Shown here piece after piece: positions 10,623 to 62,873 of a stretch of 64,000 bases of DNA. Each line of letters starts with the position of its first letter. Position 1 is the stretch's first letter. The notes under the pieces were generated by a model that had not been told where the DNA came from, did no database searches, and saw nothing but the letters and a program-made list of their open reading frames with translations. Both the position numbers and the translations under genes were made by a program. Origin of the DNA: Paraburkholderia sp. Tr-20389 (GTDB taxonomy: Bacteria; Pseudomonadota; Gammaproteobacteria; Burkholderiales; Burkholderiaceae); assembly GCF_017104565.1 (NCBI RefSeq), contig NZ_JAAGPD010000022.1:93301-157300 (forward strand). Reading direction: 5' to 3'.

Positions 10623-10888
10623 GCGCAGGCGAGTCTCGAGGCGACAACCGCCAGGGCGGCAAAGAAGCCGGCGCAGCCGCAAGGCGCGCCGGCTTCTTTG
10701 CGTCCGCTGCACTGCAACGCCCGGCGTGTGCCTCGCCGAGGCGCTTTCTGGCAGGACGCCTGCAAAAGCGGGGCCGACACGCTATCCTTATAGTCTCACC
10801 CGCAGCACCGAGATCGTCCGGACCGCGCAGCAGCGAACCGCGGCAGGCCCGGCGCCATTCACCGGCGCGCCAACTCATGGAGGTTCAC

Positions 10889-12994
10889 GTGCCCCGCAAG
10901 ACTCCTATCGAGCGATATCGGAACATCGGTATCAGTGCTCACATCGATGCCGGCAAGACCACCACCACCGAACGCATTCTTTTCTACACCGGCGTGACTC
11001 ACAAGATCGGCGAGGTTCACGACGGCGCGGCGACGATGGACTGGATGGAACAGGAGCAGGAGCGCGGCATCACGATCACGTCGGCGGCCACGACGGCCTT
11101 CTGGAAAGGCATGGCCGGCAACTATCCGGAGCACCGCATCAACATCATCGACACGCCGGGACACGTCGACTTCACGATCGAAGTCGAACGCTCGATGCGT
11201 GTGCTCGATGGCGCGTGCATGGTCTATGACTCGGTCGGCGGCGTGCAGCCGCAGTCCGAAACCGTGTGGCGCCAGGCGAACAAGTACAAGGTGCCGCGCA
11301 TCGCGTTCGTCAACAAGATGGACCGTGTCGGTGCGGACTTCTTCCGCGTGCAGAAGCAGATCGGCGAGCGCCTGAAAGGCGTGGCCGTGCCGATCCAGAT
11401 TCCCATCGGTGCGGAAGAGCACTTCCAGGGCGTCGTCGATCTCGTGAAGATGAAGGCGATCGTGTGGGACGACGAGAGCCAGGGCATCAAGTTCACGTAC
11501 GAAGAGATCCCCGACAACCTGAAGGAACTCGCGCACGAGTGGCGCGAAAAGATGGTCGAGGCAGCGGCGGAAGCGAGCGAAGAGATGCTCGAAAAGTACC
11601 TGACCGACCACGAGAGCCTGACGGAAGAAGAGATCAAGACGGGCCTGCGCAAGCGCACCATCGCGAACGAGATCGTGCCGATGCTGTGCGGCAGCGCGTT
11701 CAAGAACAAGGGCGTGCAGGCGATGCTCGACGCCGTGATCGACTATCTTCCCTCGCCTGTCGACGTGCCCGCGATTCTCGGCCACACGGAAGACGACAAG
11801 GAAGCGGAGCGTCATCCGAGCGACGACGAGCCGTTCTCGGCGCTCGCGTTCAAGATCATGACGGACCCGTTCGTCGGCCAGTTGATCTTTTTCCGCGTGT
11901 ACTCGGGCGTCGTCGAATCGGGCGACACCGTCTACAACCCGGTGAAGGAAAAGAAAGAGCGCCTCGGCCGTATTCTTCAGATGCACGCGAACGAGCGCAA
12001 AGAAATCAAGGAAGTGCGCGCGGGCGATATCGCGGCCGCGGTCGGTCTGAAGGAAGCGACCACGGGCGACACGTTGTGCGACCCGAACAACATCATCATT
12101 CTCGAGCGGATGATCTTCCCTGAGCCGGTGATCTCGCAGGCCGTCGAGCCGAAGACGAAGGTCGACCAGGAGAAGATGGGCATCGCGTTGAACCGTCTTG
12201 CACAGGAAGACCCGTCGTTCCGCGTGCAAACGGATGAAGAATCCGGCCAGACGATCATCTCGGGCATGGGCGAGTTGCACCTGGAAATTCTCGTCGACCG
12301 GATGAAGCGCGAGTTCGGTGTCGAGGCGACGGTGGGCAAGCCGCAGGTGGCGTATCGCGAGACTGTGCGCACGAAGGTCGAAGACATCGAAGGCAAGTTC
12401 GTCAAGCAGTCGGGCGGACGCGGTCAGTACGGTCACGCTGTGATCTCGCTCGAACCCGATCCGGGCAAGGGCTACGAGTTCATCGACGCGATCAAGGGCG
12501 GCGTGATTCCACGCGAATTCATTCCTGCCGTCGACAAGGGCATTCAGGAAACGCTCAAGGCTGGAGTGCTGGCTGGGTATCCTGTCGTGGACGTGAAGGT
12601 GACGCTGACCTTCGGGTCGTACCACGATGTCGACTCGAATGAAAACGCGTTCCGCATGGCTGGATCGATGGCGTTCAAGGAGGCAATGCGCAAGGCGAAG
12701 CCGGTGCTGCTCGAGCCGATGATGGCCGTCGAAGTGGAAACGCCCGAAGACTTCATGGGCAATGTCATGGGCGATTTGTCGGGACGACGTGGGATCGTGC
12801 AGGGCATGGAGGATATCGCCGGCGGCGGCGGCAAGCTCGTTCGGGCTGAAGTGCCGCTGTCCGAGATGTTCGGATACTCCACCTCGCTACGCTCGTTGAC
12901 GCAGGGGCGTGCGACCTACACCATGGAGTTCAAGCAGTACGCCGAGACACCGAACAACGTGTCCGAGGCGATTATTAATTCGAAGTCCAAGTAA
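10889..12994 (+). CDS. fusA: translation elongation factor G
   Basis: GTPase that drives ribosomal translocation and, with RRF, ribosome recycling. 701 residues, normal for Burkholderiales EF-G. G1 loop AHIDAGKTT (17-25), switch I RGITIT (59-64), DTPGH and NKMD motifs; then domains II-V ending in the conserved region after GGGGK. The GTG start (10889) has GGAGG 5 nt upstream; an ATG at 10877 (MEVHV) overlaps that Shine-Dalgarno and is less likely. It is not in the rpsL-rpsG-fusA-tuf context, so a second fusA may exist elsewhere. The element copy A begins soon after its terminator. Confidence 0.96.
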
Positions 12995-13022
12995 GTTTTT
13001 TTTATCGCTCTTCGAGAGCAGG

Positions 13023-13050
13023 GGCCCGTTCTTTTGGACGGGCCTTTTTT
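13023..13050 (+). terminator. fusA terminator
   Basis: Stem GGCCCGT (13023-13029) and ACGGGCC (13038-13044), 8-nt loop, then six T. It is 28 bp after the fusA stop. Confidence 0.88.
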
Positions 13051-13081
13051 GTTTTTTGCGGGTTGCTGTGAGGTGGCGTCT

Positions 13082-13231
13082 GCGGTTTGGCTTTTCGCTG
13101 GCATTCGCGGGTTGGCTTTTCGCTGGCATCCGCGGTTTGGCTTTTCGCTGGCATTCGCGGTTTGGCTTTTCGCTGGCATTCGCGGTTTGGCTTTTCGCTG
13201 GCATTCGCGGTTTGGCTTTTCGCTGGCATTC
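13082..13231. repeat. 25-bp tandem repeat, six units
   Basis: Six head-to-tail 25-bp units, each starting GCGGTTTGGCTTTTCGCTGG. Units 1 and 3-6 are identical; unit 2 has two changes. A partial seventh unit runs into the left end of element copy A, whose own border sequence (CGCTGGCATTCGCGGTTTG) is the repeat motif. So the repeat looks like an expansion of the element's edge. The plus strand of each unit is T-rich with one or two A. Because 25 is not a multiple of 3, long frames cross it on the minus strand, but they read as a mechanical 25-residue repeat and are not credible genes. Confidence 0.92.
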
Positions 13232-13238
13232 GCGGTTT

Positions 13239-13852
13239 GCTTCTGGTTTGCTGGCGTTGCCCCTGTGCGGGGCGGCACTTACTTTCTTTGCCGCCGCAAA
13301 GAAAGTAAGCAAAGAAAGCGGGCTCACACCGCCAGCCCGTGTGATTGCCTGCGGGCCCCCAACGGGTCCCGCACTCCACACGGCAACACTTTGTTTTGCG
13401 CCCGTTACAGGCGCCTTGAACAGGCGCATCACCCACTCCACTCACCCGCAGGCAGCCAGCGGCAGTGACTCGTCTGCGCCGCCCAGGTGGCAAACTGTGT
13501 GTCGGTTGTCGCGCCGTATGCGTTGGCGATCCTACGACACCGATCCCGCTTTTCCGTCCGGAGTGGTGCACTTCCATCGCGACGGCCTACACACAGTTTG
13601 CCACCTGGGCGGCCGCGAACGCCTGGTAACGCGGCCCGTGACGCGAGAGTGTGAAGTGGGTGATGCGTGAGTTAGCACGCTGGCAACGGGCGGAAAGTAG
13701 CGTGTTGCCGCGTGGAGCGTAAGAACCGTCGGGGGCCCGCAGGCAACAACACGGGCTGGCGGTGTGAGCCCGCTTTCTTTGCTTACTTTCTTTGCGGCGG
13801 CAAAGAAAGTAAGTGCCGCCCCGCACAGGGGCAACGCCAGCAAACCAGAAGC
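13239..13852. repeat. long inverted-repeat element, copy A
   Basis: 614-bp imperfect palindrome in the fusA-cupin gap. Outer arms 13239-13360 and 13731-13852 (122 bp each) are reverse complements with 2 mismatches. Each arm holds a perfect 14-bp hairpin with a 4-nt loop (13278-13309 and 13782-13813; stem CTTACTTTCTTTGC). Inner arms 13478-13502 and 13589-13613 are perfect 25-bp inverted repeats starting GCCGCCCAGGTGGCAAACTG. They flank an 86-bp centre. The DNA between outer and inner arms is a diverged inverted repeat (shared cores such as GCGCATCACCCACT). Border similarity extends right to about 13867. A second copy is at 60226-60810. No transposase and no clear target duplication were seen. 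It resembles a fold-back or MITE-like element, but mobility is inference. Confidence 0.85.
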
Positions 13853-13951
13853 AAAACGCGGATGCCACTCCCGGCAATTAAAACATCAAATTTTTGACCA
13901 TGCCAGAATGGCAAAGCAAACCGCGAGAGCAAGGAGCAAAGGAGACAAGCC

Positions 13952-14440
13952 ATGTCACACGACGACCAGCGAGCCAGCACCGACTGGCGCACCAACGGCG
14001 TCAAGGTCATCAAAGCCGACCAGCTGGACACGAACACACCGCAAACGCCCGGCATGAACCGCGCAGCAGCAATCAACGCCGCCCGCGCGGGAGCGCAAAA
14101 GCTATGGGCCGGCACGGTAACCATCCACCCAAATGCAAAAACAGGCGCGCACCACCACGGCGCGCTAGAAAGCGTGATTTACGTCGTGCGCGGACATGCC
14201 CGCATGCGCTGGGGCGAACATCTGGAATTCACCGCCGAAGCCGGCCCCGGCGACTTCATCTTCGTGCCGCCCTATGTGCCGCATCAAGAAATCAACGCGA
14301 GCACCGACGATCCGCTCGAATGCGTGCTCGTGCGCAGCGACAACGAAGCCGTCGTCGTGAATCTCAACATCGATGCCGTCGAACAACCCGAGACCGTCTA
14401 CTGGGTCGACCCCATCCACAAGCATCCACACGATCACTGA
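13952..14440 (+). CDS. cupin-domain protein
   Basis: 162-residue single-domain cupin. The metal-binding motif is present: HHHG with His67-69, Glu73, and the later His111 in PPYVPHQE. This gives the usual three-His/one-Glu site. The reaction is unknown; similar small cupins are isomerases, dioxygenases or sugar-binding proteins. The start has two Shine-Dalgarno-like runs (AAGGAGCAAAGGAG). It is followed after 28 bp by a nickel/cobalt transporter, likely in one operon. The first 70 codons are unusual: about 16 end in A and only one in T, a skew lost in the second half (see findings). Confidence 0.85.
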   Translation: MSHDDQRASTDWRTNGVKVIKADQLDTNTPQTPGMNRAAAINAARAGAQKLWAGTVTIHPNAKTGAHHHGALESVIYVVRGHARMRWGEHLEFTAEAGPGDFIFVPPYVPHQEINASTDDPLECVLVRSDNEAVVVNLNIDAVEQPETVYWVDPIHKHPHDH

Positions 14441-14468
14441 CGCCCTCACCGTCCCTCACCACGCCCAC

Positions 14469-58067: not shown

Positions 58068-58622
58068 ATGCCCGATTACACCGGTCACGCGAGTCGACCT
58101 TCCGCCGCCGTCCTGCTGGAGCGCCAGTTCGCGCTCGCGGACGAGGCCGCGACCACGGCATTCGGCGCAGGCTTCGCGCATGCAATCGAGAGCGTGCGCA
58201 GCGAAGCCCGAGTGACGGGCCAGCACGCATTCCAGGGCCTCCAGGTGCAACTGCACGGCGACCTGGGCGCCGGCAAGACGACACTCGTGCGCGCCACACT
58301 GCGCGCGCTCGGACACGCGGGCCGCGTGCGCAGCCCGACCTATACGCTTGTCGAACCTTATGCGGTCGAACGGCCGGATGGGGAACTCCAGCTGTATCAC
58401 TTCGATCTTTACCGTTTCAACGATCCGGCCGAATGGGCCGACGCAGGCTTTCGCGAGTACTTCGACAGCGGCGCAATCTGCCTCGTCGAATGGCCGCAAC
58501 GCGCGGGCAGCCTGCTGGGCGTGCCGGATCTCGTCTTCTCGCTCGACGTCGACGGCGATGGCCGCGTGCTGGTCGCCCGGGCGTATAGCGAACCAGGAAA
58601 GGCATGTCTCGAAAGATGTTGA
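58068..58622 (+). CDS. tsaE: tRNA threonylcarbamoyladenosine biosynthesis protein TsaE
   Basis: ATPase of the TsaBDE complex that forms t6A37 on ANN-decoding tRNAs. 184 residues. P-loop GDLGAGKTTLVR, switch-like RSPTYTLVEPY, LYHFDLYRFNDPAEWADAGF (cited by YHFDLYRFNDPAEW) and LVEWPQRA. It overlaps the amidase start by 19 bp, as in E. coli tsaE-amiB. Confidence 0.95.
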   Translation: MPDYTGHASRPSAAVLLERQFALADEAATTAFGAGFAHAIESVRSEARVTGQHAFQGLQVQLHGDLGAGKTTLVRATLRALGHAGRVRSPTYTLVEPYAVERPDGELQLYHFDLYRFNDPAEWADAGFREYFDSGAICLVEWPQRAGSLLGVPDLVFSLDVDGDGRVLVARAYSEPGKACLERC

Positions 58623-60148
58623 TCAAACCGTTCCGCTCGATCGAATCGGCGGCCACCGCGACGCATAACTGGCGCCGCCGGCAGATTCTTCGCGCGGGCG
58701 CTTCCACGCTCGTCCTCGGCCTGGCGCCACGCCTCGCGTTGGCGTCGTCGGTGCTGGGCGTGCGCGTGTGGCCCGCGCGCGACTACACACGCGTGACCAT
58801 CGAGTCCGATCAGCCGCTGCAGAACACGCAGCAGCTGTTGCAGGGCCCGGACCGGCTGGTGGTCGACCTGAGCGGTCTCGATCTCGACCAGGCGCTGAAG
58901 GATCTCGTGTCGAAGATCGCGCCGAACGATCCGCAGATTCAATCCGTGCGCGTCGGCCAGTATCAGCCGCATGTGGTGCGGATGGTGTTCGACCTGAAGG
59001 GCTCGGTGAAGCCGCAGGTGTTCACGCTGCCGCCCGTCGGCACGTACAAGTACCGGCTCGTGTTCGACCTGTATCCCGCCGTCGCGCCCGATCCGCTGAT
59101 GGATCTGCTCGCGCAGACCGAGCGCAAGGAGCAGCAACTGAAGGACAACGCCGCGCCGCCCGCTGCGACGCTCAGCGGCCCGACCACGCCGCCCGGCGAC
59201 AACAGCGACGCGTTCTTCGAAAAGTACGCGCAGAACGGCGCGCCCTCGCCTGCTGTGCCCGTACCGCATCCGCCGCTGCACAGCGCGCCTGCACCCGCGC
59301 CGCACGTACCGTCGAAGCCCACACCGATGCCTGCGCCACCTGTCATCGCGCGCAACAACGACAACGATGCGGACAACGCCGGCGACAACAACGACGACGA
59401 GTACAAGTTCACTACGCCGAAGAAAGGCAGCAACACGGTGCGTCTGCTGACGGTCGCGATCGATCCGGGCCACGGCGGCGAGGATCCTGGCGCGATCGGT
59501 GGCAGCGGGACGTATGAGAAGCACGTTGCGCTCGACATCGCGAAGAAACTGCGCGCGAAGATCGATGCGCAGCCGAACATGCGCGCGATGATGACGCGCG
59601 ACGCCGACTTCTTCGTGCCGCTGAACGTGCGCGTGCAGAAGGCGCGGCGAGTCGGCGCGGACCTGTTCGTGTCGATTCATGCGGACGCGTTCACGACGCC
59701 GGAAGCGAGCGGCTCGTCGGTATTCGCGCTGTCGGAACATGGCGCGTCGAGTGCGGCCGCGCGCTGGATGGCGAACAAGGAGAACTCGTCGGATCAGATC
59801 GGCGGCATCAACATCAAGTCCGCCGATGCGAGCGTGAACCGTGCGCTATTCGACATGTCGACGACGGCGCAGATCCGCGATTCGATGCGGTATGGCACGT
59901 TCGTGCTGAAGGAGATCGGCGGGATCAACAGGTTGCATAAGGGCTCTGTCGAGCAGGCCGGGTTTGCCGTTCTCAAGGCGCCGGATATTCCGTCGATTCT
60001 CGTTGAGACTGCTTTTATCAGTAACCCTGACGAGGAGCGTCGTCTCAATGACGATGCGTATCGGGATAAGATGGCTAACGCCATTATGAGTGGTATTAAG
60101 CGGTATTTTGCGGCTAACCCGCCGCTTGCCAAGAGTCGGATGACTTAA
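58604..60148 (+). CDS. amiC: N-acetylmuramoyl-L-alanine amidase with AMIN domain (AmiC/AmiB type)
   Basis: Periplasmic zinc amidase that cleaves septal peptidoglycan during cell separation. 514 residues. The Tat-type signal is WRRRQILRAGAST (24-36) with cleavage near LALA. An AMIN domain (about 48-160) directs it to the septum. A Pro/Asn/Asp-rich linker follows (175-270). The Amidase_3 domain (from about 283) has AIDPGHGGEDPGA, the Glu in YEKHVALD, DLFVSIHAD and LVETAFISN. The last 76 codons (59918-60145) end in T 30 times and never in A, against 7 T in the preceding 76, a sharp compositional step next to the element. Confidence 0.95.
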   Translation: MSRKMLIKPFRSIESAATATHNWRRRQILRAGASTLVLGLAPRLALASSVLGVRVWPARDYTRVTIESDQPLQNTQQLLQGPDRLVVDLSGLDLDQALKDLVSKIAPNDPQIQSVRVGQYQPHVVRMVFDLKGSVKPQVFTLPPVGTYKYRLVFDLYPAVAPDPLMDLLAQTERKEQQLKDNAAPPAATLSGPTTPPGDNSDAFFEKYAQNGAPSPAVPVPHPPLHSAPAPAPHVPSKPTPMPAPPVIARNNDNDADNAGDNNDDEYKFTTPKKGSNTVRLLTVAIDPGHGGEDPGAIGGSGTYEKHVALDIAKKLRAKIDAQPNMRAMMTRDADFFVPLNVRVQKARRVGADLFVSIHADAFTTPEASGSSVFALSEHGASSAAARWMANKENSSDQIGGINIKSADASVNRALFDMSTTAQIRDSMRYGTFVLKEIGGINRLHKGSVEQAGFAVLKAPDIPSILVETAFISNPDEERRLNDDAYRDKMANAIMSGIKRYFAANPPLAKSRMT

Positions 60149-60152
60149 TCGG

Positions 60153-60937
60153 TTTTTTTTGTCTGCGACGCGGCGGTGTGCCGTTATTTGTTCGCTGGCG
60201 TCCGCGTTTTGTCTCTGGTTTGCTGGCGTTGCCCCTGTGCGGGGCGGCACTTACTTTCTTTGCCGCCGCAAAGAAAGTAAGCAAAGAAAGCGGGCTAACA
60301 CCGCCAGCCCGTGTGATTGCCTGCGGGCCCCCGACGGGTCCCGCACTCCACACGGCAACACATTGTTTGGCGCCCATTGCCAGCGCCCTGAACAAGCGCA
60401 TCACCCACTCCAGTCACCCGTAGGGCAGCCAGCGGCAGCGATTCGTCTGCGCCGCCCAGGTGGCAAACTGTGTGTAGCTTGTCGCACCGTACACGTTCGC
60501 GCTCCTACGACACCGCTCCCGCTTTTCAGTCCGGAGTGGTGCACTTCCATCAGGATGGCCTACACACAGTTTGCCACCTGGGCGGCCGTGGACGTCTGCT
60601 AACGCAGTCCGTGACGCGGGAGTGTGAAGTGGGGGATGCGTGAGTTAGCACGCTGGCAACGGACGTAAATAAGTGCGTTGCCGCGTGAAGCGTAAGAACT
60701 GTTGGGGGCCCGCAGGCAATCAAACGGGCTGGCGGTGTGAGCCCGCTTTCTTTGCTTACTTTCTTTGCGGCGGCAAAGAAAGTAAGTGCCGCCCCGCACA
60801 GGGGCAACGCAAGAAGCAAGACAACATCACGCGGACGCCAGCGAAAGCGGCAGAACGAAACAAGAAAGGCGAAGCCCGCGCCGAGAAGGCAAGAATGGCG
60901 ACTGCGTCGCAGACAAAAAAGTCGCAGACAAAAAAAA
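60153..60937. repeat. concentric outer inverted repeats around element copy B
   Basis: Two further inverted-repeat pairs enclose copy B. The outermost 17-bp pair is T8-GTCTGCGAC (60153-60169) and GTCGCAGAC-A8 (60921-60937), perfect. An extra tandem copy, GTCGCAGACAAAAAA, sits at 60906-60920. The inner 16-bp pair is TTCGCTGGCGTCCGCG (60191-60206) and its perfect complement (60830-60845). Together they fill the whole gap from the amidase stop (60148) to the EamA stop (60940). The plus strand left of the arms is T-rich (33 T, 2 A in 60149-60225) and right of them A-rich (56 A, 5 T in 60811-60939). Confidence 0.8.
60226..60810. repeat. long inverted-repeat element, copy B
   Basis: 585-bp second copy of the element at 13254-13837. 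Outer arms 60226-60332 and 60704-60810 (107 bp) are complements with 2 mismatches, and each holds the same CTTACTTTCTTTGC hairpin. Inner 25-bp arms at 60451-60475 and 60562-60586 are perfect and identical to copy A. The centre is 86 bp in both copies with about 12 substitutions and no indel; TCCGGAGTGGTGCACTTCCA is unchanged. Arms are therefore better conserved than the centre. Frames such as LPLCGAALTFFAAAKKVS occur on both strands from both arms of both copies, and are byproducts of arm identity. Confidence 0.87.
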
Positions 60938-60939
60938 CA

Positions 60940-61821
60940 TCACCTCGCCAGAGAAAACCTCTCCACGACCCACCCACCAAAAACATTAACAGCAAGCCCA
61001 GCCATAACAAGAACAGCCCCAGCAATCTGCGCAGCAGACAAACCCTCATCGAGAAAAACAGAAGCCGAAGCGAGCCCAACAATCGGCACGAGCAACGAAA
61101 ACGGGGCGACCTGCCCCGCCGGATACCGCGACAACAACCGGCTCCACAACCCATACCCCAACAACGTGGCAACAAACGCGAGATAAACAATCGCGAACAC
61201 CGACGAAGCGCCGATCCCTGTCAACGCAGCCTCGATCCGCTGCGGTCCCTCGAACAGATACGACAGCACGAAAAACGGCACAGGCGGAATCAGACTGCCC
61301 CACACGACGAGTCCCACCAGATCGACCTTGCCCACCTTCTTCGTGACGATATTGCCGAGCGCCCACATCACCGCCGCGCACAGCGTAAGGATGAACCCGG
61401 CAAGCGTCATCGAATGGCCGCCCTGCAACCCGATCACGCCAAGACCAATCGCCGCGATCACAAGACCGAGCACGTTCTGCGCGCGAAAGCGCTCGTGCAG
61501 AAACAGCGCGGCAAAGCCAAGCGTGAAGAACGCCTGCGCCTGCAGCACCAGCGACGCAAGACCGGCCGGCATGCCGACATACATCGCGGAAAACAGAAAC
61601 GCGAACTGCCCGAGCGAGATCGTCGCGCCATACGCGAGCAACCAGCGCCACGGCATCTTCGGCCGCCTGATGAAAAACACAGCGGGGAACGCGGCAAGCA
61701 TGAACCGCAACGCGCCGAGCAACATCGGCGGCACGCCATGCAGGCCGACCTTGATCACGACGAAGTTCACACCCCACGCAACGACGACGACCAGCGCCAG
61801 CAGCAGGTCTTTCGGTGACAT
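60940..61821 (-). CDS. EamA/RhaT family transporter
   Basis: 293-residue inner-membrane exporter with ten helices in two EamA repeats. WGVNFVVIKVGL at the first helix and FLHERF, with the second repeat FLDEGLS, are family motifs. It resembles amino-acid or metabolite exporters such as EamA/RarD; the substrate is unknown. The start MSPKDLLLAL at 61821 has CAGGAG upstream. Its last 61 codons end in T 29 times and never in A, fading upstream (about 10 of the next 53), mirroring the convergent amidase across element copy B. Confidence 0.9.
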   Translation of the reverse strand: MSPKDLLLALVVVVAWGVNFVVIKVGLHGVPPMLLGALRFMLAAFPAVFFIRRPKMPWRWLLAYGATISLGQFAFLFSAMYVGMPAGLASLVLQAQAFFTLGFAALFLHERFRAQNVLGLVIAAIGLGVIGLQGGHSMTLAGFILTLCAAVMWALGNIVTKKVGKVDLVGLVVWGSLIPPVPFFVLSYLFEGPQRIEAALTGIGASSVFAIVYLAFVATLLGYGLWSRLLSRYPAGQVAPFSLLVPIVGLASASVFLDEGLSAAQIAGAVLVMAGLAVNVFGGWVVERFSLAR

Positions 61822-61991
61822 CCGGACTCCTGTTTTTACTTGTAGCTGAATCGGAGAGTGTAGCGGAGCATCGACCCGCGCACCGCCTGCTTCGCGCAGG
61901 GCGCGCCTTACCGCGTGTCGCGACCTCGACCGCCTGCCGTCGCCGCCGGGCAGTAGAATGAGCCGTCCTGTCCCCACCAATCGAGCTCGTC

Positions 61992-62873
61992 ATGTCCACA
62001 TCGATCAAAGCGGTTCTCAAGCCCCACGTCCGCGACATCGGCAATCTGGCCGTGCGGCGCGTGCTGCCCGCGATGGCAGCGCGTCTCGTCGGTCCATTCA
62101 TCTTCTTCGATCACATGGGCCCCGCCACCCTTCCCGCCGGTACAGGTCTCGACGTGCGCCCGCATCCGCATATCGGCCTCGCGACGGTCACCTATCTGTT
62201 CGAAGGCGCGATCATGCATCGCGACAGCCTCGGCTCCGAACAGAAGATCGTCCCCGGCGACGTCAACTGGATGACGGCCGGCCGCGGCATCGTCCACTCG
62301 GAACGCACGCCCGAACCGGAGCGCACCAATGGCTCGACGGTACATGGCATCCAGACATGGGTCGCGCTGCCGCTCGCCGACGAAGACGCCGAGCCTTCGT
62401 TCGAACATCACGCAGGCGCAACGCTGCCGGAAATCGAGCGCAACGGCGTCACGCTGCGAATCATTGCAGGGTCGTCGTTCGGCAAGACGGCGCCGACACG
62501 CACGTTCTCGGGCACGCTGTATGCAGCCGCACACTTCTCGCCGGGCAGCGTGCTCGCGCTCGAACCCGAGCATGAAGAACGCGGCGTGTATCTGGTCGAC
62601 GGCGATCTTTCGCTCGATGGCGAGCCGCTCGAAGTCGCCACGATGGCCGTGCTCACGCCCGGCGAAACCATCACGCTCGCCAGCGCGAAAGGCGCCACGG
62701 TGATGCTGCTGGGCGGCGAGAAACTCGAAGGCGAGCGCTTCATCGAATGGAATTTCGTCGCGAGTTCGCGCGAGAAGATCGAGCAGGCCAAGCTCGCGTG
62801 GACGAACCAGGAGATGGGCAAGGTGCCCGGCGAAACGGAATGGATCCCGCTGCCCGAGCGCAAGCCGCGCTAG
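61992..62873 (+). CDS. pirin family protein
   Basis: 293 residues, bicupin. The N-terminal cupin holds the metal site: His in RPHPHIGLATVTYLFEG and HRDS, and Glu in the later HSERTP segment (GRGIVHSERT). The C-terminal domain is a pirin_C fold. Bacterial pirins can be quercetinases or modulate metabolic enzymes; which applies here is unknown. Close upstream of cnoX on the same strand. Confidence 0.92.
   Translation: MSTSIKAVLKPHVRDIGNLAVRRVLPAMAARLVGPFIFFDHMGPATLPAGTGLDVRPHPHIGLATVTYLFEGAIMHRDSLGSEQKIVPGDVNWMTAGRGIVHSERTPEPERTNGSTVHGIQTWVALPLADEDAEPSFEHHAGATLPEIERNGVTLRIIAGSSFGKTAPTRTFSGTLYAAAHFSPGSVLALEPEHEERGVYLVDGDLSLDGEPLEVATMAVLTPGETITLASAKGATVMLLGGEKLEGERFIEWNFVASSREKIEQAKLAWTNQEMGKVPGETEWIPLPERKPR

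What the first reader, a model, noticed from the sequence alone, without database searches (positions are those of the whole stretch)
59918..61130. Mirror-image T/A skew on both sides of the element, reaching into flanking codons
Counts by eye. Left of copy B (60149-60225): 33 T, 2 A. Right (60811-60939): 56 A, 5 T. In the amidase the last 76 codons end in T 30 times, never in A; the 76 before them, 7 times in T. In the convergent EamA gene the last 61 codons end in T 29 times, never in A, and the next 53 about 10 times. At copy A: left (12995-13081) 37 T, 6 A; right (13853-13951) 39 A, 12 T; and the cupin gene, transcribed away from the element, has 16 A-ending and 1 T-ending among its first 70 codons, then about 8 and 8. 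So the strand running 5' to 3' towards the element is T-rich whatever the transcription. That is what C-to-T change in 3' single-stranded tails would leave if the palindrome were repeatedly cut (SbcCD-like) and resected. fusA codons next to copy A show it only weakly.
Basis: partly seen in the sequence, partly recalled or inferred. Interest (0 to 1): 0.82.

Follow-up and report, generated by a model that had tools for sequence, protein, structure and literature searches.

The report
Mutation scars flanking repeated DNA palindromes
In a Paraburkholderia-type bacterium, a long palindromic DNA repeat found at about a hundred places is flanked on both sides by a strand-specific mutation scar about a kilobase long, as if the DNA there were repeatedly opened to a single strand, so that sequence right beside it diverges up to twice as fast.

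Summary
The window holds two of about 100 copies of a ~580-bp palindromic element. On the strand running 5'->3' towards the element ("S strand"), C is lost and T gained, decaying over ~1.5 kb: 98 of 98 left and 96 of 96 right flanks at 0-100 bp, 179 of 196 flanks at 100-700 bp. Junctions without the element show none. Genes pointing away show it too, and both sides of the replication fork are similar. At 61 empty-site orthologous flanks the relative has almost no gradient. Polarised rates: C>T 78 falling to 22 and G>T 33 falling to 4 per thousand; C>A at most doubles, G>A falls. This reads as damage on one strand, not insertion preference or codon usage. At shared sites a relative carries unrelated interiors that are homogeneous within its genome, so copies exchange sequence. 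Best reading: recurrent opening at the hairpin leaves S single-stranded and is repaired by recombination; breakage plus 5' resection is favoured, polymerase-block gaps remain possible. The breaks are inferred.

The parts
60228..60808 (.). Copy B of the palindromic element, outer motif to outer motif
   Evidence: inverted arms of 163 nt, 88% complementary; DNA fold (60213-60833) -262.8 kcal/mol, z -31.5 on 20 shuffles; 22-bp palindrome 157 times in this genome
13256..13835 (.). Copy A of the element
   Evidence: inverted arms of 190 nt, 90% complementary
58700..60227 (+). Left flank of copy B; S strand is the + strand; C-to-T and G-to-T scar
   Evidence: polarised changes, codon counts
60809..62300 (-). 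Right flank of copy B; S strand is the - strand (A-rich when read on +)
58604..60148 (+). N-acetylmuramoyl-L-alanine amidase (Amidase_3, AMIN); last 76 codons end in T 30 times, against 2-18 in 80 relatives (79 without an element found, one whose contig ends in one)
60940..61821 (-). EamA transporter gene converging on the element; last 61 codons end in T 29 times
   Evidence: start from my own gene call
60155..60171 (+). Left half of an outer inverted repeat TTTTTTGTCTGCGACGC; its inner part recurs at most other occupied amidase sites
60904..60920 (-). Right half of the same outer inverted repeat
13090..13239 (+). Tandem 25-bp repeats carrying GCTGGCATTCGCG, left of copy A
13952..14441 (+). 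Cupin gene transcribed away from copy A; first 70 codons end in A 16 times, in T once
10877..12994 (+). fusA, transcribed towards copy A; no shift at third positions

Best explanation
The element is a chronic fragile site. Its long inverted arms form a hairpin or cruciform; the DNA there is recurrently interrupted; 5'->3' resection on both sides leaves the strand that runs 5'->3' into the element single-stranded for about 1 kb; bases on that strand are damaged (cytosine deamination, guanine oxidation, base loss) or filled in by an error-prone polymerase, giving C>T, G>T and lesser changes chiefly on that strand; repair by recombination, often with another copy as template, restores the element and homogenises its interior across the genome. 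Shown: strand-specific, distance-graded, element-dependent mutation, and concerted evolution of interiors. Inferred: the break, the resection, the damage chemistry and the repair route.
For: Genome-wide gradient. Fourfold sites show it in genes pointing towards (T/(C+T) .62 at 100-200 bp.14 far) and away (.515.09 far) while A/(A+G) does not rise. Of the best 30 of 118 amidase loci, ten are occupied (own included): nine have T 23-32 of 76, one 11; twenty empty ones have 4-11. 61 empty-site flanks: relative C/own T 534 vs 73 reverse at 200-400 bp, 210 vs 177 at 2.5-3 kb. Polarised rates on 59 flanks: C>T 78 to 21.7, G>T 33.3 to 3.7, C>A 6.7 to 3.2 per thousand; decay lengths 768 and 318 bp. Divergence between two occupied genomes is 13.9% at 0-200 bp, about 7.3% far. 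Similar on both fork sides. Interiors: 31 own copies against the elements of the matching G120 stretches average 4% identity, while sampled pairs within a genome agree at 78-84%; own/G020 same-site pairs are no closer than different-site pairs (.823, n=12, vs .821). recB over its cut-off in 6 of 6 genomes tested.
Against: No break was observed. Element arms show no C>T excess on S among copies (C>T 72.9 vs G>A 80.1 per thousand), which naive resection through the arms would leave unless conversion overwrites it; G>T (27.1 vs C>A 16.9) and A>G (88.9 vs T>C 59.0) do lean the S way. fusA beside copy A shows no shift, 17 of 196 flanks are not positive, and one occupied amidase site has T 11. In E. 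coli chronic SbcCD breakage at a palindrome gave no mutagenesis at rpoB (PMC4213011, section read); where rpoB lies from the palindrome is not said there. No SbcD over cut-off here. G>A falls and T>G rises (17.5 vs 3.8 per thousand, 12 events in the nearest bin) near the element; simple S-strand damage predicts neither. Polymerase-block gaps give the same strand geometry.
Confidence: 0.52

Rival explanations
1. Polymerase-block gaps: each template strand folds into the hairpin (or a local triplex) and stops the polymerase copying it. The unfinished stretch beyond the block is exactly the S strand on both sides, for either fork direction. Damage and gap filling then give the scar; no double-strand break is needed.
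For: Same strand geometry; decay of hundreds of bases; folded arms would be protected and lack a C>T bias; very stable fold; an effect on both fork sides.
Against: Leading- and lagging-strand gaps might be expected to differ in length, yet approach and departure sides are close (T-A skew .169 vs .153 and .147 vs .180; polarised C>T 54 vs 64 at 300-600 bp and 37 vs 47 at 600-1000, but also 20 vs 26 far away); genome-wide exchange of interiors is more readily explained by break repair.
Confidence: 0.27
2. Nicking rather than double-strand breakage: a hairpin nuclease nicks the element and a 5'->3' exonuclease degrades away from the nick, exposing the S strand.
For: Same strand geometry; does not need SbcCD, consistent.
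Against: No nicking enzyme was looked for or identified; both sides of single copies are affected (80 of 94 copies positive on both sides), needing frequent nicks on both strands.
Confidence: 0.1
3. Transcription: convergent genes run into the element, and the non-template strand, exposed by stalled polymerases or R-loops, is damaged.
For: 54 of 100 copies lie between convergent genes and only 3 between divergent ones, against 37 and 66 of 376 pairs without element; skew is somewhat larger in genes pointing towards it.
Against: Genes pointing away show a similar shift on the log-odds scale (from; log-odds worked by hand: about 1.6 towards and 1.6 away at 200-300 bp, 1.0 and 0.7 at 450-600 bp); 21 convergent junctions without element show none.
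Confidence: 0.05
4. Target preference or selection: elements inserted into T-rich gene ends, or selection favours a G/T-rich strand.
For: Both would give mirrored skew; A>G is also raised near the element.
Against: Empty-site orthologues have almost no gradient (T/(C+T) .374 near.347 far); divergence nearly doubles near the element, and keto-neutral G<->T differences rise ~6-fold while A<->G differences between two occupied genomes do not (ratios worked by hand).
Confidence: 0.04

Closest known systems
Inverted-repeat fragility and flank mutagenesis in yeast (PMC3681665; abstract and discussion read)
   Same: Inverted repeats break, and both sides mutate, attributed to resection to single-stranded DNA and error-prone synthesis
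   Different: Yeast reporters 8 kb away, Pol zeta; here natural bacterial repeats, ~100 sites, evolutionary time, strand-resolved, range ~1 kb
E. coli 246-bp palindrome cleaved by SbcCD (PMC3315005 abstract; PMC4213011 abstract and one section)
   Same: Long interrupted palindrome in a bacterial chromosome with chronic breakage
   Different: Needs SbcCD, not found over cut-off here; in the section read, mutagenesis was tested at rpoB and was absent
Mutation hotspots at I-SceI breaks in E. coli (Shee 2012; not held; known from a citation in PMC3809393, and from recall)
   Same: Mutations concentrate near breaks
   Different: Induced break; as far as I recall no strand-resolved natural footprint
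Intrastrand triplex motifs in bacteria (PMC4666352; abstract, passages and one section)
   Same: Repeated structure-forming motif with raised variability, most within ~500 nt
   Different: Short G/C-rich motif, mechanism left open; the words skew and Burkholderia do not occur in its main text
MITEs and REP/BIME repeats (recalled; PMC3733652 seen in a listing only)
   Same: Short non-coding inverted repeats in many intergenic copies
   Different: Conserved sites with interchangeable unrelated palindromic interiors and a mutation scar

Membership tests
SbcCD-dependent palindrome breakage | Long palindrome able to fold | tested here: met
   z -31.5; whole-element palindromy .77-.83 in three interior types against .03 shuffled
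SbcCD-dependent palindrome breakage | SbcCD present in carriers | tested here: not met
   No SbcD over cut-off in G000; 11 of 118 genomes have it, among them the carrier G067; carriers of the outer motif G003, G035 and G100 have no hit at E <= 0.001. A diverged SbcD-like/SMC pair in G000 leaves a weak door open
SbcCD-dependent palindrome breakage | Physical break at the element | not testable with these tools
   needs end mapping
Resection-type one-strand mutagenesis | Changes mainly on the strand with its 3' end at the site, on both sides, decaying with distance | tested here: met
Resection-type one-strand mutagenesis | Dependence on resection and recombination genes | not testable with these tools
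   recB over cut-off in 6 of 6 genomes; no genetics possible
MITE | Inverted repeats, many short intergenic copies | tested here: met
   coding within the element was not examined beyond the ORF list
MITE | Target-site duplication and a matching transposase | not tested
   ends are buried in low-complexity tracts
Intrastrand triplex motif | Three-part mirror motif forming a triplex | tested here: inconclusive
   CTTTCTTTG...CAAAGAAAG...CAAAGAAAG seen by eye only
Rfam RF02421 Bp1_684 sRNA | Score over the gathering threshold | tested here: not met
   27.5 and 19.4 bits against 44

The most novel reading that the evidence does not exclude
A break-driven selfish palindrome: its hairpin provokes interruption of its own locus, repair copies the interior from other copies through the shared outer arms, so a new palindromic interior can sweep through nearly all resident sites of a genome while sites stay fixed, and the collateral cost is a lasting one-strand mutation gradient in the ~1 kb of neighbouring genes. 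Bacterial gene ends next to such sites would thus evolve under a local, directional mutator.
Probability: 0.35. Interest if true: 0.93.

Novelty: new variant of a known kind. Interest (0 to 1): 0.86.

Why it matters
It is a natural, strand-resolved, base-by-base record of where single-stranded DNA probably lies at structured repeats in wild bacteria, read from public genomes. It makes testable how palindromes are tolerated where no canonical SbcD is detected, how long resection or gaps run, and which damage dominates. It also shows a bacterial repeat whose nearest neighbour sequence diverges up to twice as fast, a caveat for codon-usage and molecular-clock work, and a repeat family whose interiors are replaced genome-wide while sites stay put. 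I found no description of this element or of such a scar in ten searches of the held library, which lacks most subscription journals.

Tried and rejected
Chi-like sites: GCTGG, GCTGGCG and GCTGGTGG are enriched on the S strand out to ~1.5 kb, but other G3CT words behave alike once composition is counted (TGCTGGCG 55 vs 12 on the other strand, Markov z 4.1). Left as inconclusive.

A sequence context for C>T: raw contexts are confounded by codon position; on third positions the preference is mild. No deaminase motif claimed.

Replication direction via G120 assumed ter at half length of a replicon that seems to join two G020 replicons; repeated with G020 chromosome 1, 29 copies: again no significant difference.

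Interior mutation spectrum from same-site pairs own/G120 failed because the interiors are unrelated (one usable pair); this led.

Within-copy arm correction: core arms of one copy are no more alike than left and right arms of different copies (.801 vs .804); the outer cassettes are somewhat matched (21 of 91 pairs within 2 differences, permuted mean 5.8, maximum 14).

In one search the amidase end was sought on one strand only and in a wrong frame for some rows; one search replaces it. An early idea that genomes without SbcD-like hits lack elements was dropped: G003, G035 and G100 carry the outer motif.

Rows dropped: of 196 flanks, 80 and 77 could be aligned to the fetched G120 and G005 stretches (only stretches around 40 and 38 probe hits were fetched); 2 and 6 of these were left unclassified for lack of room. 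'Occupied' there is a loose test (an outer motif or palindrome within about 0.9 kb of the expected point). In G020, with the strict test of two outer ends, 23 of 44 flanks are occupied; with the loose test 44 of 47. Amidase codons were read in the best 30 of 118 genomes only.
Full report
WHAT WAS CLAIMED.

The counts reproduce. The window lies in a 9.0-Mb genome whose nearest named relatives by the amidase locus are Paraburkholderia (record titles; the genome itself is unnamed). It holds 157 copies of the 22-bp palindrome and 100 copies of the element by its centre motif, all read with flanks (two lie in the window); on the strand running 5'->3' towards the element (S strand), left of the element C is 0.21-0.24 and T 0.25-0.30 at 100-300 bp against about 0.32 and 0.18 beyond 2 kb; the right flank is the mirror image. 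T-A skew is positive in 98 of 98 left and 96 of 96 right flanks at 0-100 bp and fades by 1.2-1.5 kb. At 100-700 bp it is positive in 179 of 196 flanks (mean 0.176), against means of -0.03 to +0.03 at 175 junctions without an element.

IT IS NOT TRANSCRIPTION OR CODON USAGE. My own gene calls allow fourfold-degenerate sites to be split by gene direction. Genes pointing towards the element: T/(C+T) .62.45.41.31 at 100-200, 200-300, 300-450, 450-600 bp.14 far away. Genes pointing away.515.32.23.17 and .09. A/(A+G), which would report the other strand, does not rise in either class. Elements favour convergent gene pairs (54 convergent, 43 tandem, 3 divergent; pairs without element 37, 273, 66). 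fusA, next to copy A, shows no shift.

IT DEPENDS ON THE ELEMENT. At the amidase-EamA site, 80 relatives have T at 2-18 of the last 76 codon ends against 30 in the window; one of them (L086, T 11) ends its contig in an element, and in 79 none was found. The highest, 18, is L087 (Paraburkholderia sp. C35), which has no element but keeps a GTCTGCGACGC stem like those flanking occupied sites: possibly a site that lost the element. Amidase loci of the best 30 of 118 genus genomes were read: ten carry an element (own included), nine of them with T 23-32 and one (L173, with a different tandem repeat, perhaps a young copy) with 11; twenty without element have 4-11. One search compares this genome with G005 at 61 flanks where G005 is empty: G005 C/own T against the reverse is 285 vs 41 (0-200 bp), 534 vs 73, 398 vs 125, 315 vs 118, 253 vs 134, ending at 210 vs 177 (2.5-3 kb). 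G005 itself is nearly flat there (T/(C+T) .374 near.347 far), which rules out insertion preference.

SPECTRUM. With G005 as outgroup, changes on the own and G120 branches can be polarised at 59 flanks. Per 1000 source bases on S, from 0-150 bp to 2.5-3 kb: C>T 78.0 to 21.7; G>T 33.3 to 3.7; A>G 30.5 to 16.8; C>G 24.2 to 9.9; T>G 17.5 to 3.8 (12 events in the nearest bin); A>T 8.5 to 2.4; C>A 6.7 to 3.2; T>C 16.0 to 18.3; G>C 11.6 to 11.7. G>A goes the other way, 15.8 (12.1 at 150-300) to 24.3. Exponential fits give 768 +/- 78 bp for C>T and 318 +/- 45 bp for G>T. At the window's own copy B, changes within 350 bp against three empty outgroups are C>T 32 vs G>A 1 and G>T 12 vs C>A 0. Between this genome and G120, both occupied, divergence is 13.9% at 0-200 bp against about 7.3% far away. 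The pattern reads as damage or error-prone filling of one strand; different decay lengths suggest at least two processes. The drop in G>A and the rise in T>G I cannot explain.

WHICH PROCESS EXPOSES THAT STRAND. S is the strand left after 5' resection from a break or nick in the element. It is also the template left uncopied if a polymerase is stopped by the hairpin on either template. Fork direction matters little: T-A skew on approach and departure sides is .169 vs .153 with G120 coordinates (p .39) and .147 vs .180 with G020 chromosome 1 (p .61), though polarised C>T is slightly higher on the departure side at 300-1000 bp and also far away. No SbcD passes the cut-off in this genome; 11 of 118 genus genomes have one, G067 among the skewed carriers. 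G001, G066 and G077, occupied and skewed at the amidase site, have no SbcD-like hit above 30 bits. This genome does hold a diverged metallophosphoesterase/SMC-ATPase pair (L278), and recB.

CONCERTED EVOLUTION. G120 is about 91% identical to this genome at the amidase, and 76 of 80 alignable flanks are occupied in it by a loose test. Yet for 31 own copies set against the elements of the matching G120 stretches the interiors are unrelated (mean identity 0.04, highest 0.81; one G120 element has the own-type centre), while sampled pairs within one genome agree at 0.78-0.84 and the outer 95 bp agree at 0.82 between genomes. Against G020, which has the same interior type, same-site pairs are no more alike than different-site pairs (.823, 12 pairs over 11 G020 elements, vs .821). 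Caballeronia plasmids carry yet other interiors. The three interior types measured are palindromic (.77-.83 against .03 shuffled). So copies exchange sequence while sites and hairpin shape persist. Recurrent break repair between copies explains this best, and could also overwrite one-strand damage in the arms, where C>T shows no bias although G>T and A>G lean the S way. This is why I favour breakage over gaps, at modest confidence.

RELATIVES. G120 and G104 copies show the gradient as well (53 of 58 and 23 of 24 flanks positive at 100-600 bp), and so do five G005 copies (10 of 10 flanks). Five plasmid-borne examples were checked one by one: T-A skew on S is positive on both sides in all five, but T/(C+T) exceeds the far value clearly in only some. 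In the family, 41 of 249 genomes in 3 of 25 genera carry the outer motif.

LITERATURE. Yeast inverted repeats are known to cause breaks and mutations on both sides (PMC3681665, abstract and discussion). In the section of PMC4213011 that I read, E. coli palindrome breakage was tested for mutagenesis at rpoB, with no effect. E. coli triplex motifs have raised variability around them, without a mechanism (PMC4666352, section read). I found no strand-resolved natural footprint of this kind in the held library (searches named under Why it matters).

Noticed in passing
L195-L229 against L009-L084: Same-site elements of two close genomes have unrelated but palindromic interiors, each homogeneous within its genome.
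   Followed up: partly
L087, around 6045: Amidase-EamA site without element but with raised T in both genes (18 of 76 and 12 of 61) and a flanking stem retained: possibly a site that lost the element.
   Followed up: partly
L295 (G020), orthologous to L080:2881-3489: Site empty in G020 whose flanks still have T/(C+T) .56 at 100-300 bp (one site only).
   Followed up: no
13090-13239: 25-bp tandem repeats next to copy A; a GCTGGCATCCGC word edges most copies (149 of 196 flanks within 150 bp).
   Followed up: no
60131-60260 and 60776-60853: Sub-threshold matches to Rfam RF02421 (Burkholderia sRNA Bp1_684) at both edges of copy B.
   Followed up: no
L278:864-4606: SbcD-like metallophosphoesterase overlapping an SMC/AAA ATPase gene, below the SbcD cut-off.
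   Followed up: partly
G000 C11 and C8: Two RecB-like proteins above the curated cut-off in this genome, as in G005.
   Followed up: no
59 shared flanks: On the S strand G>A falls towards the element (24 to 12-16 per thousand) while C>T rises, and T>G rises too; unexplained.
   Followed up: no
196 flanks, 200-1500 bp: TGCTGGCG is enriched on the S strand (55 vs 12 on the other; far 10): a candidate oriented recombination site, not separable from composition here.
   Followed up: partly
G120:C1: A 6.58-Mb replicon onto which probes from two G020 replicons map: joined chromosomes or an assembly join.
   Followed up: no
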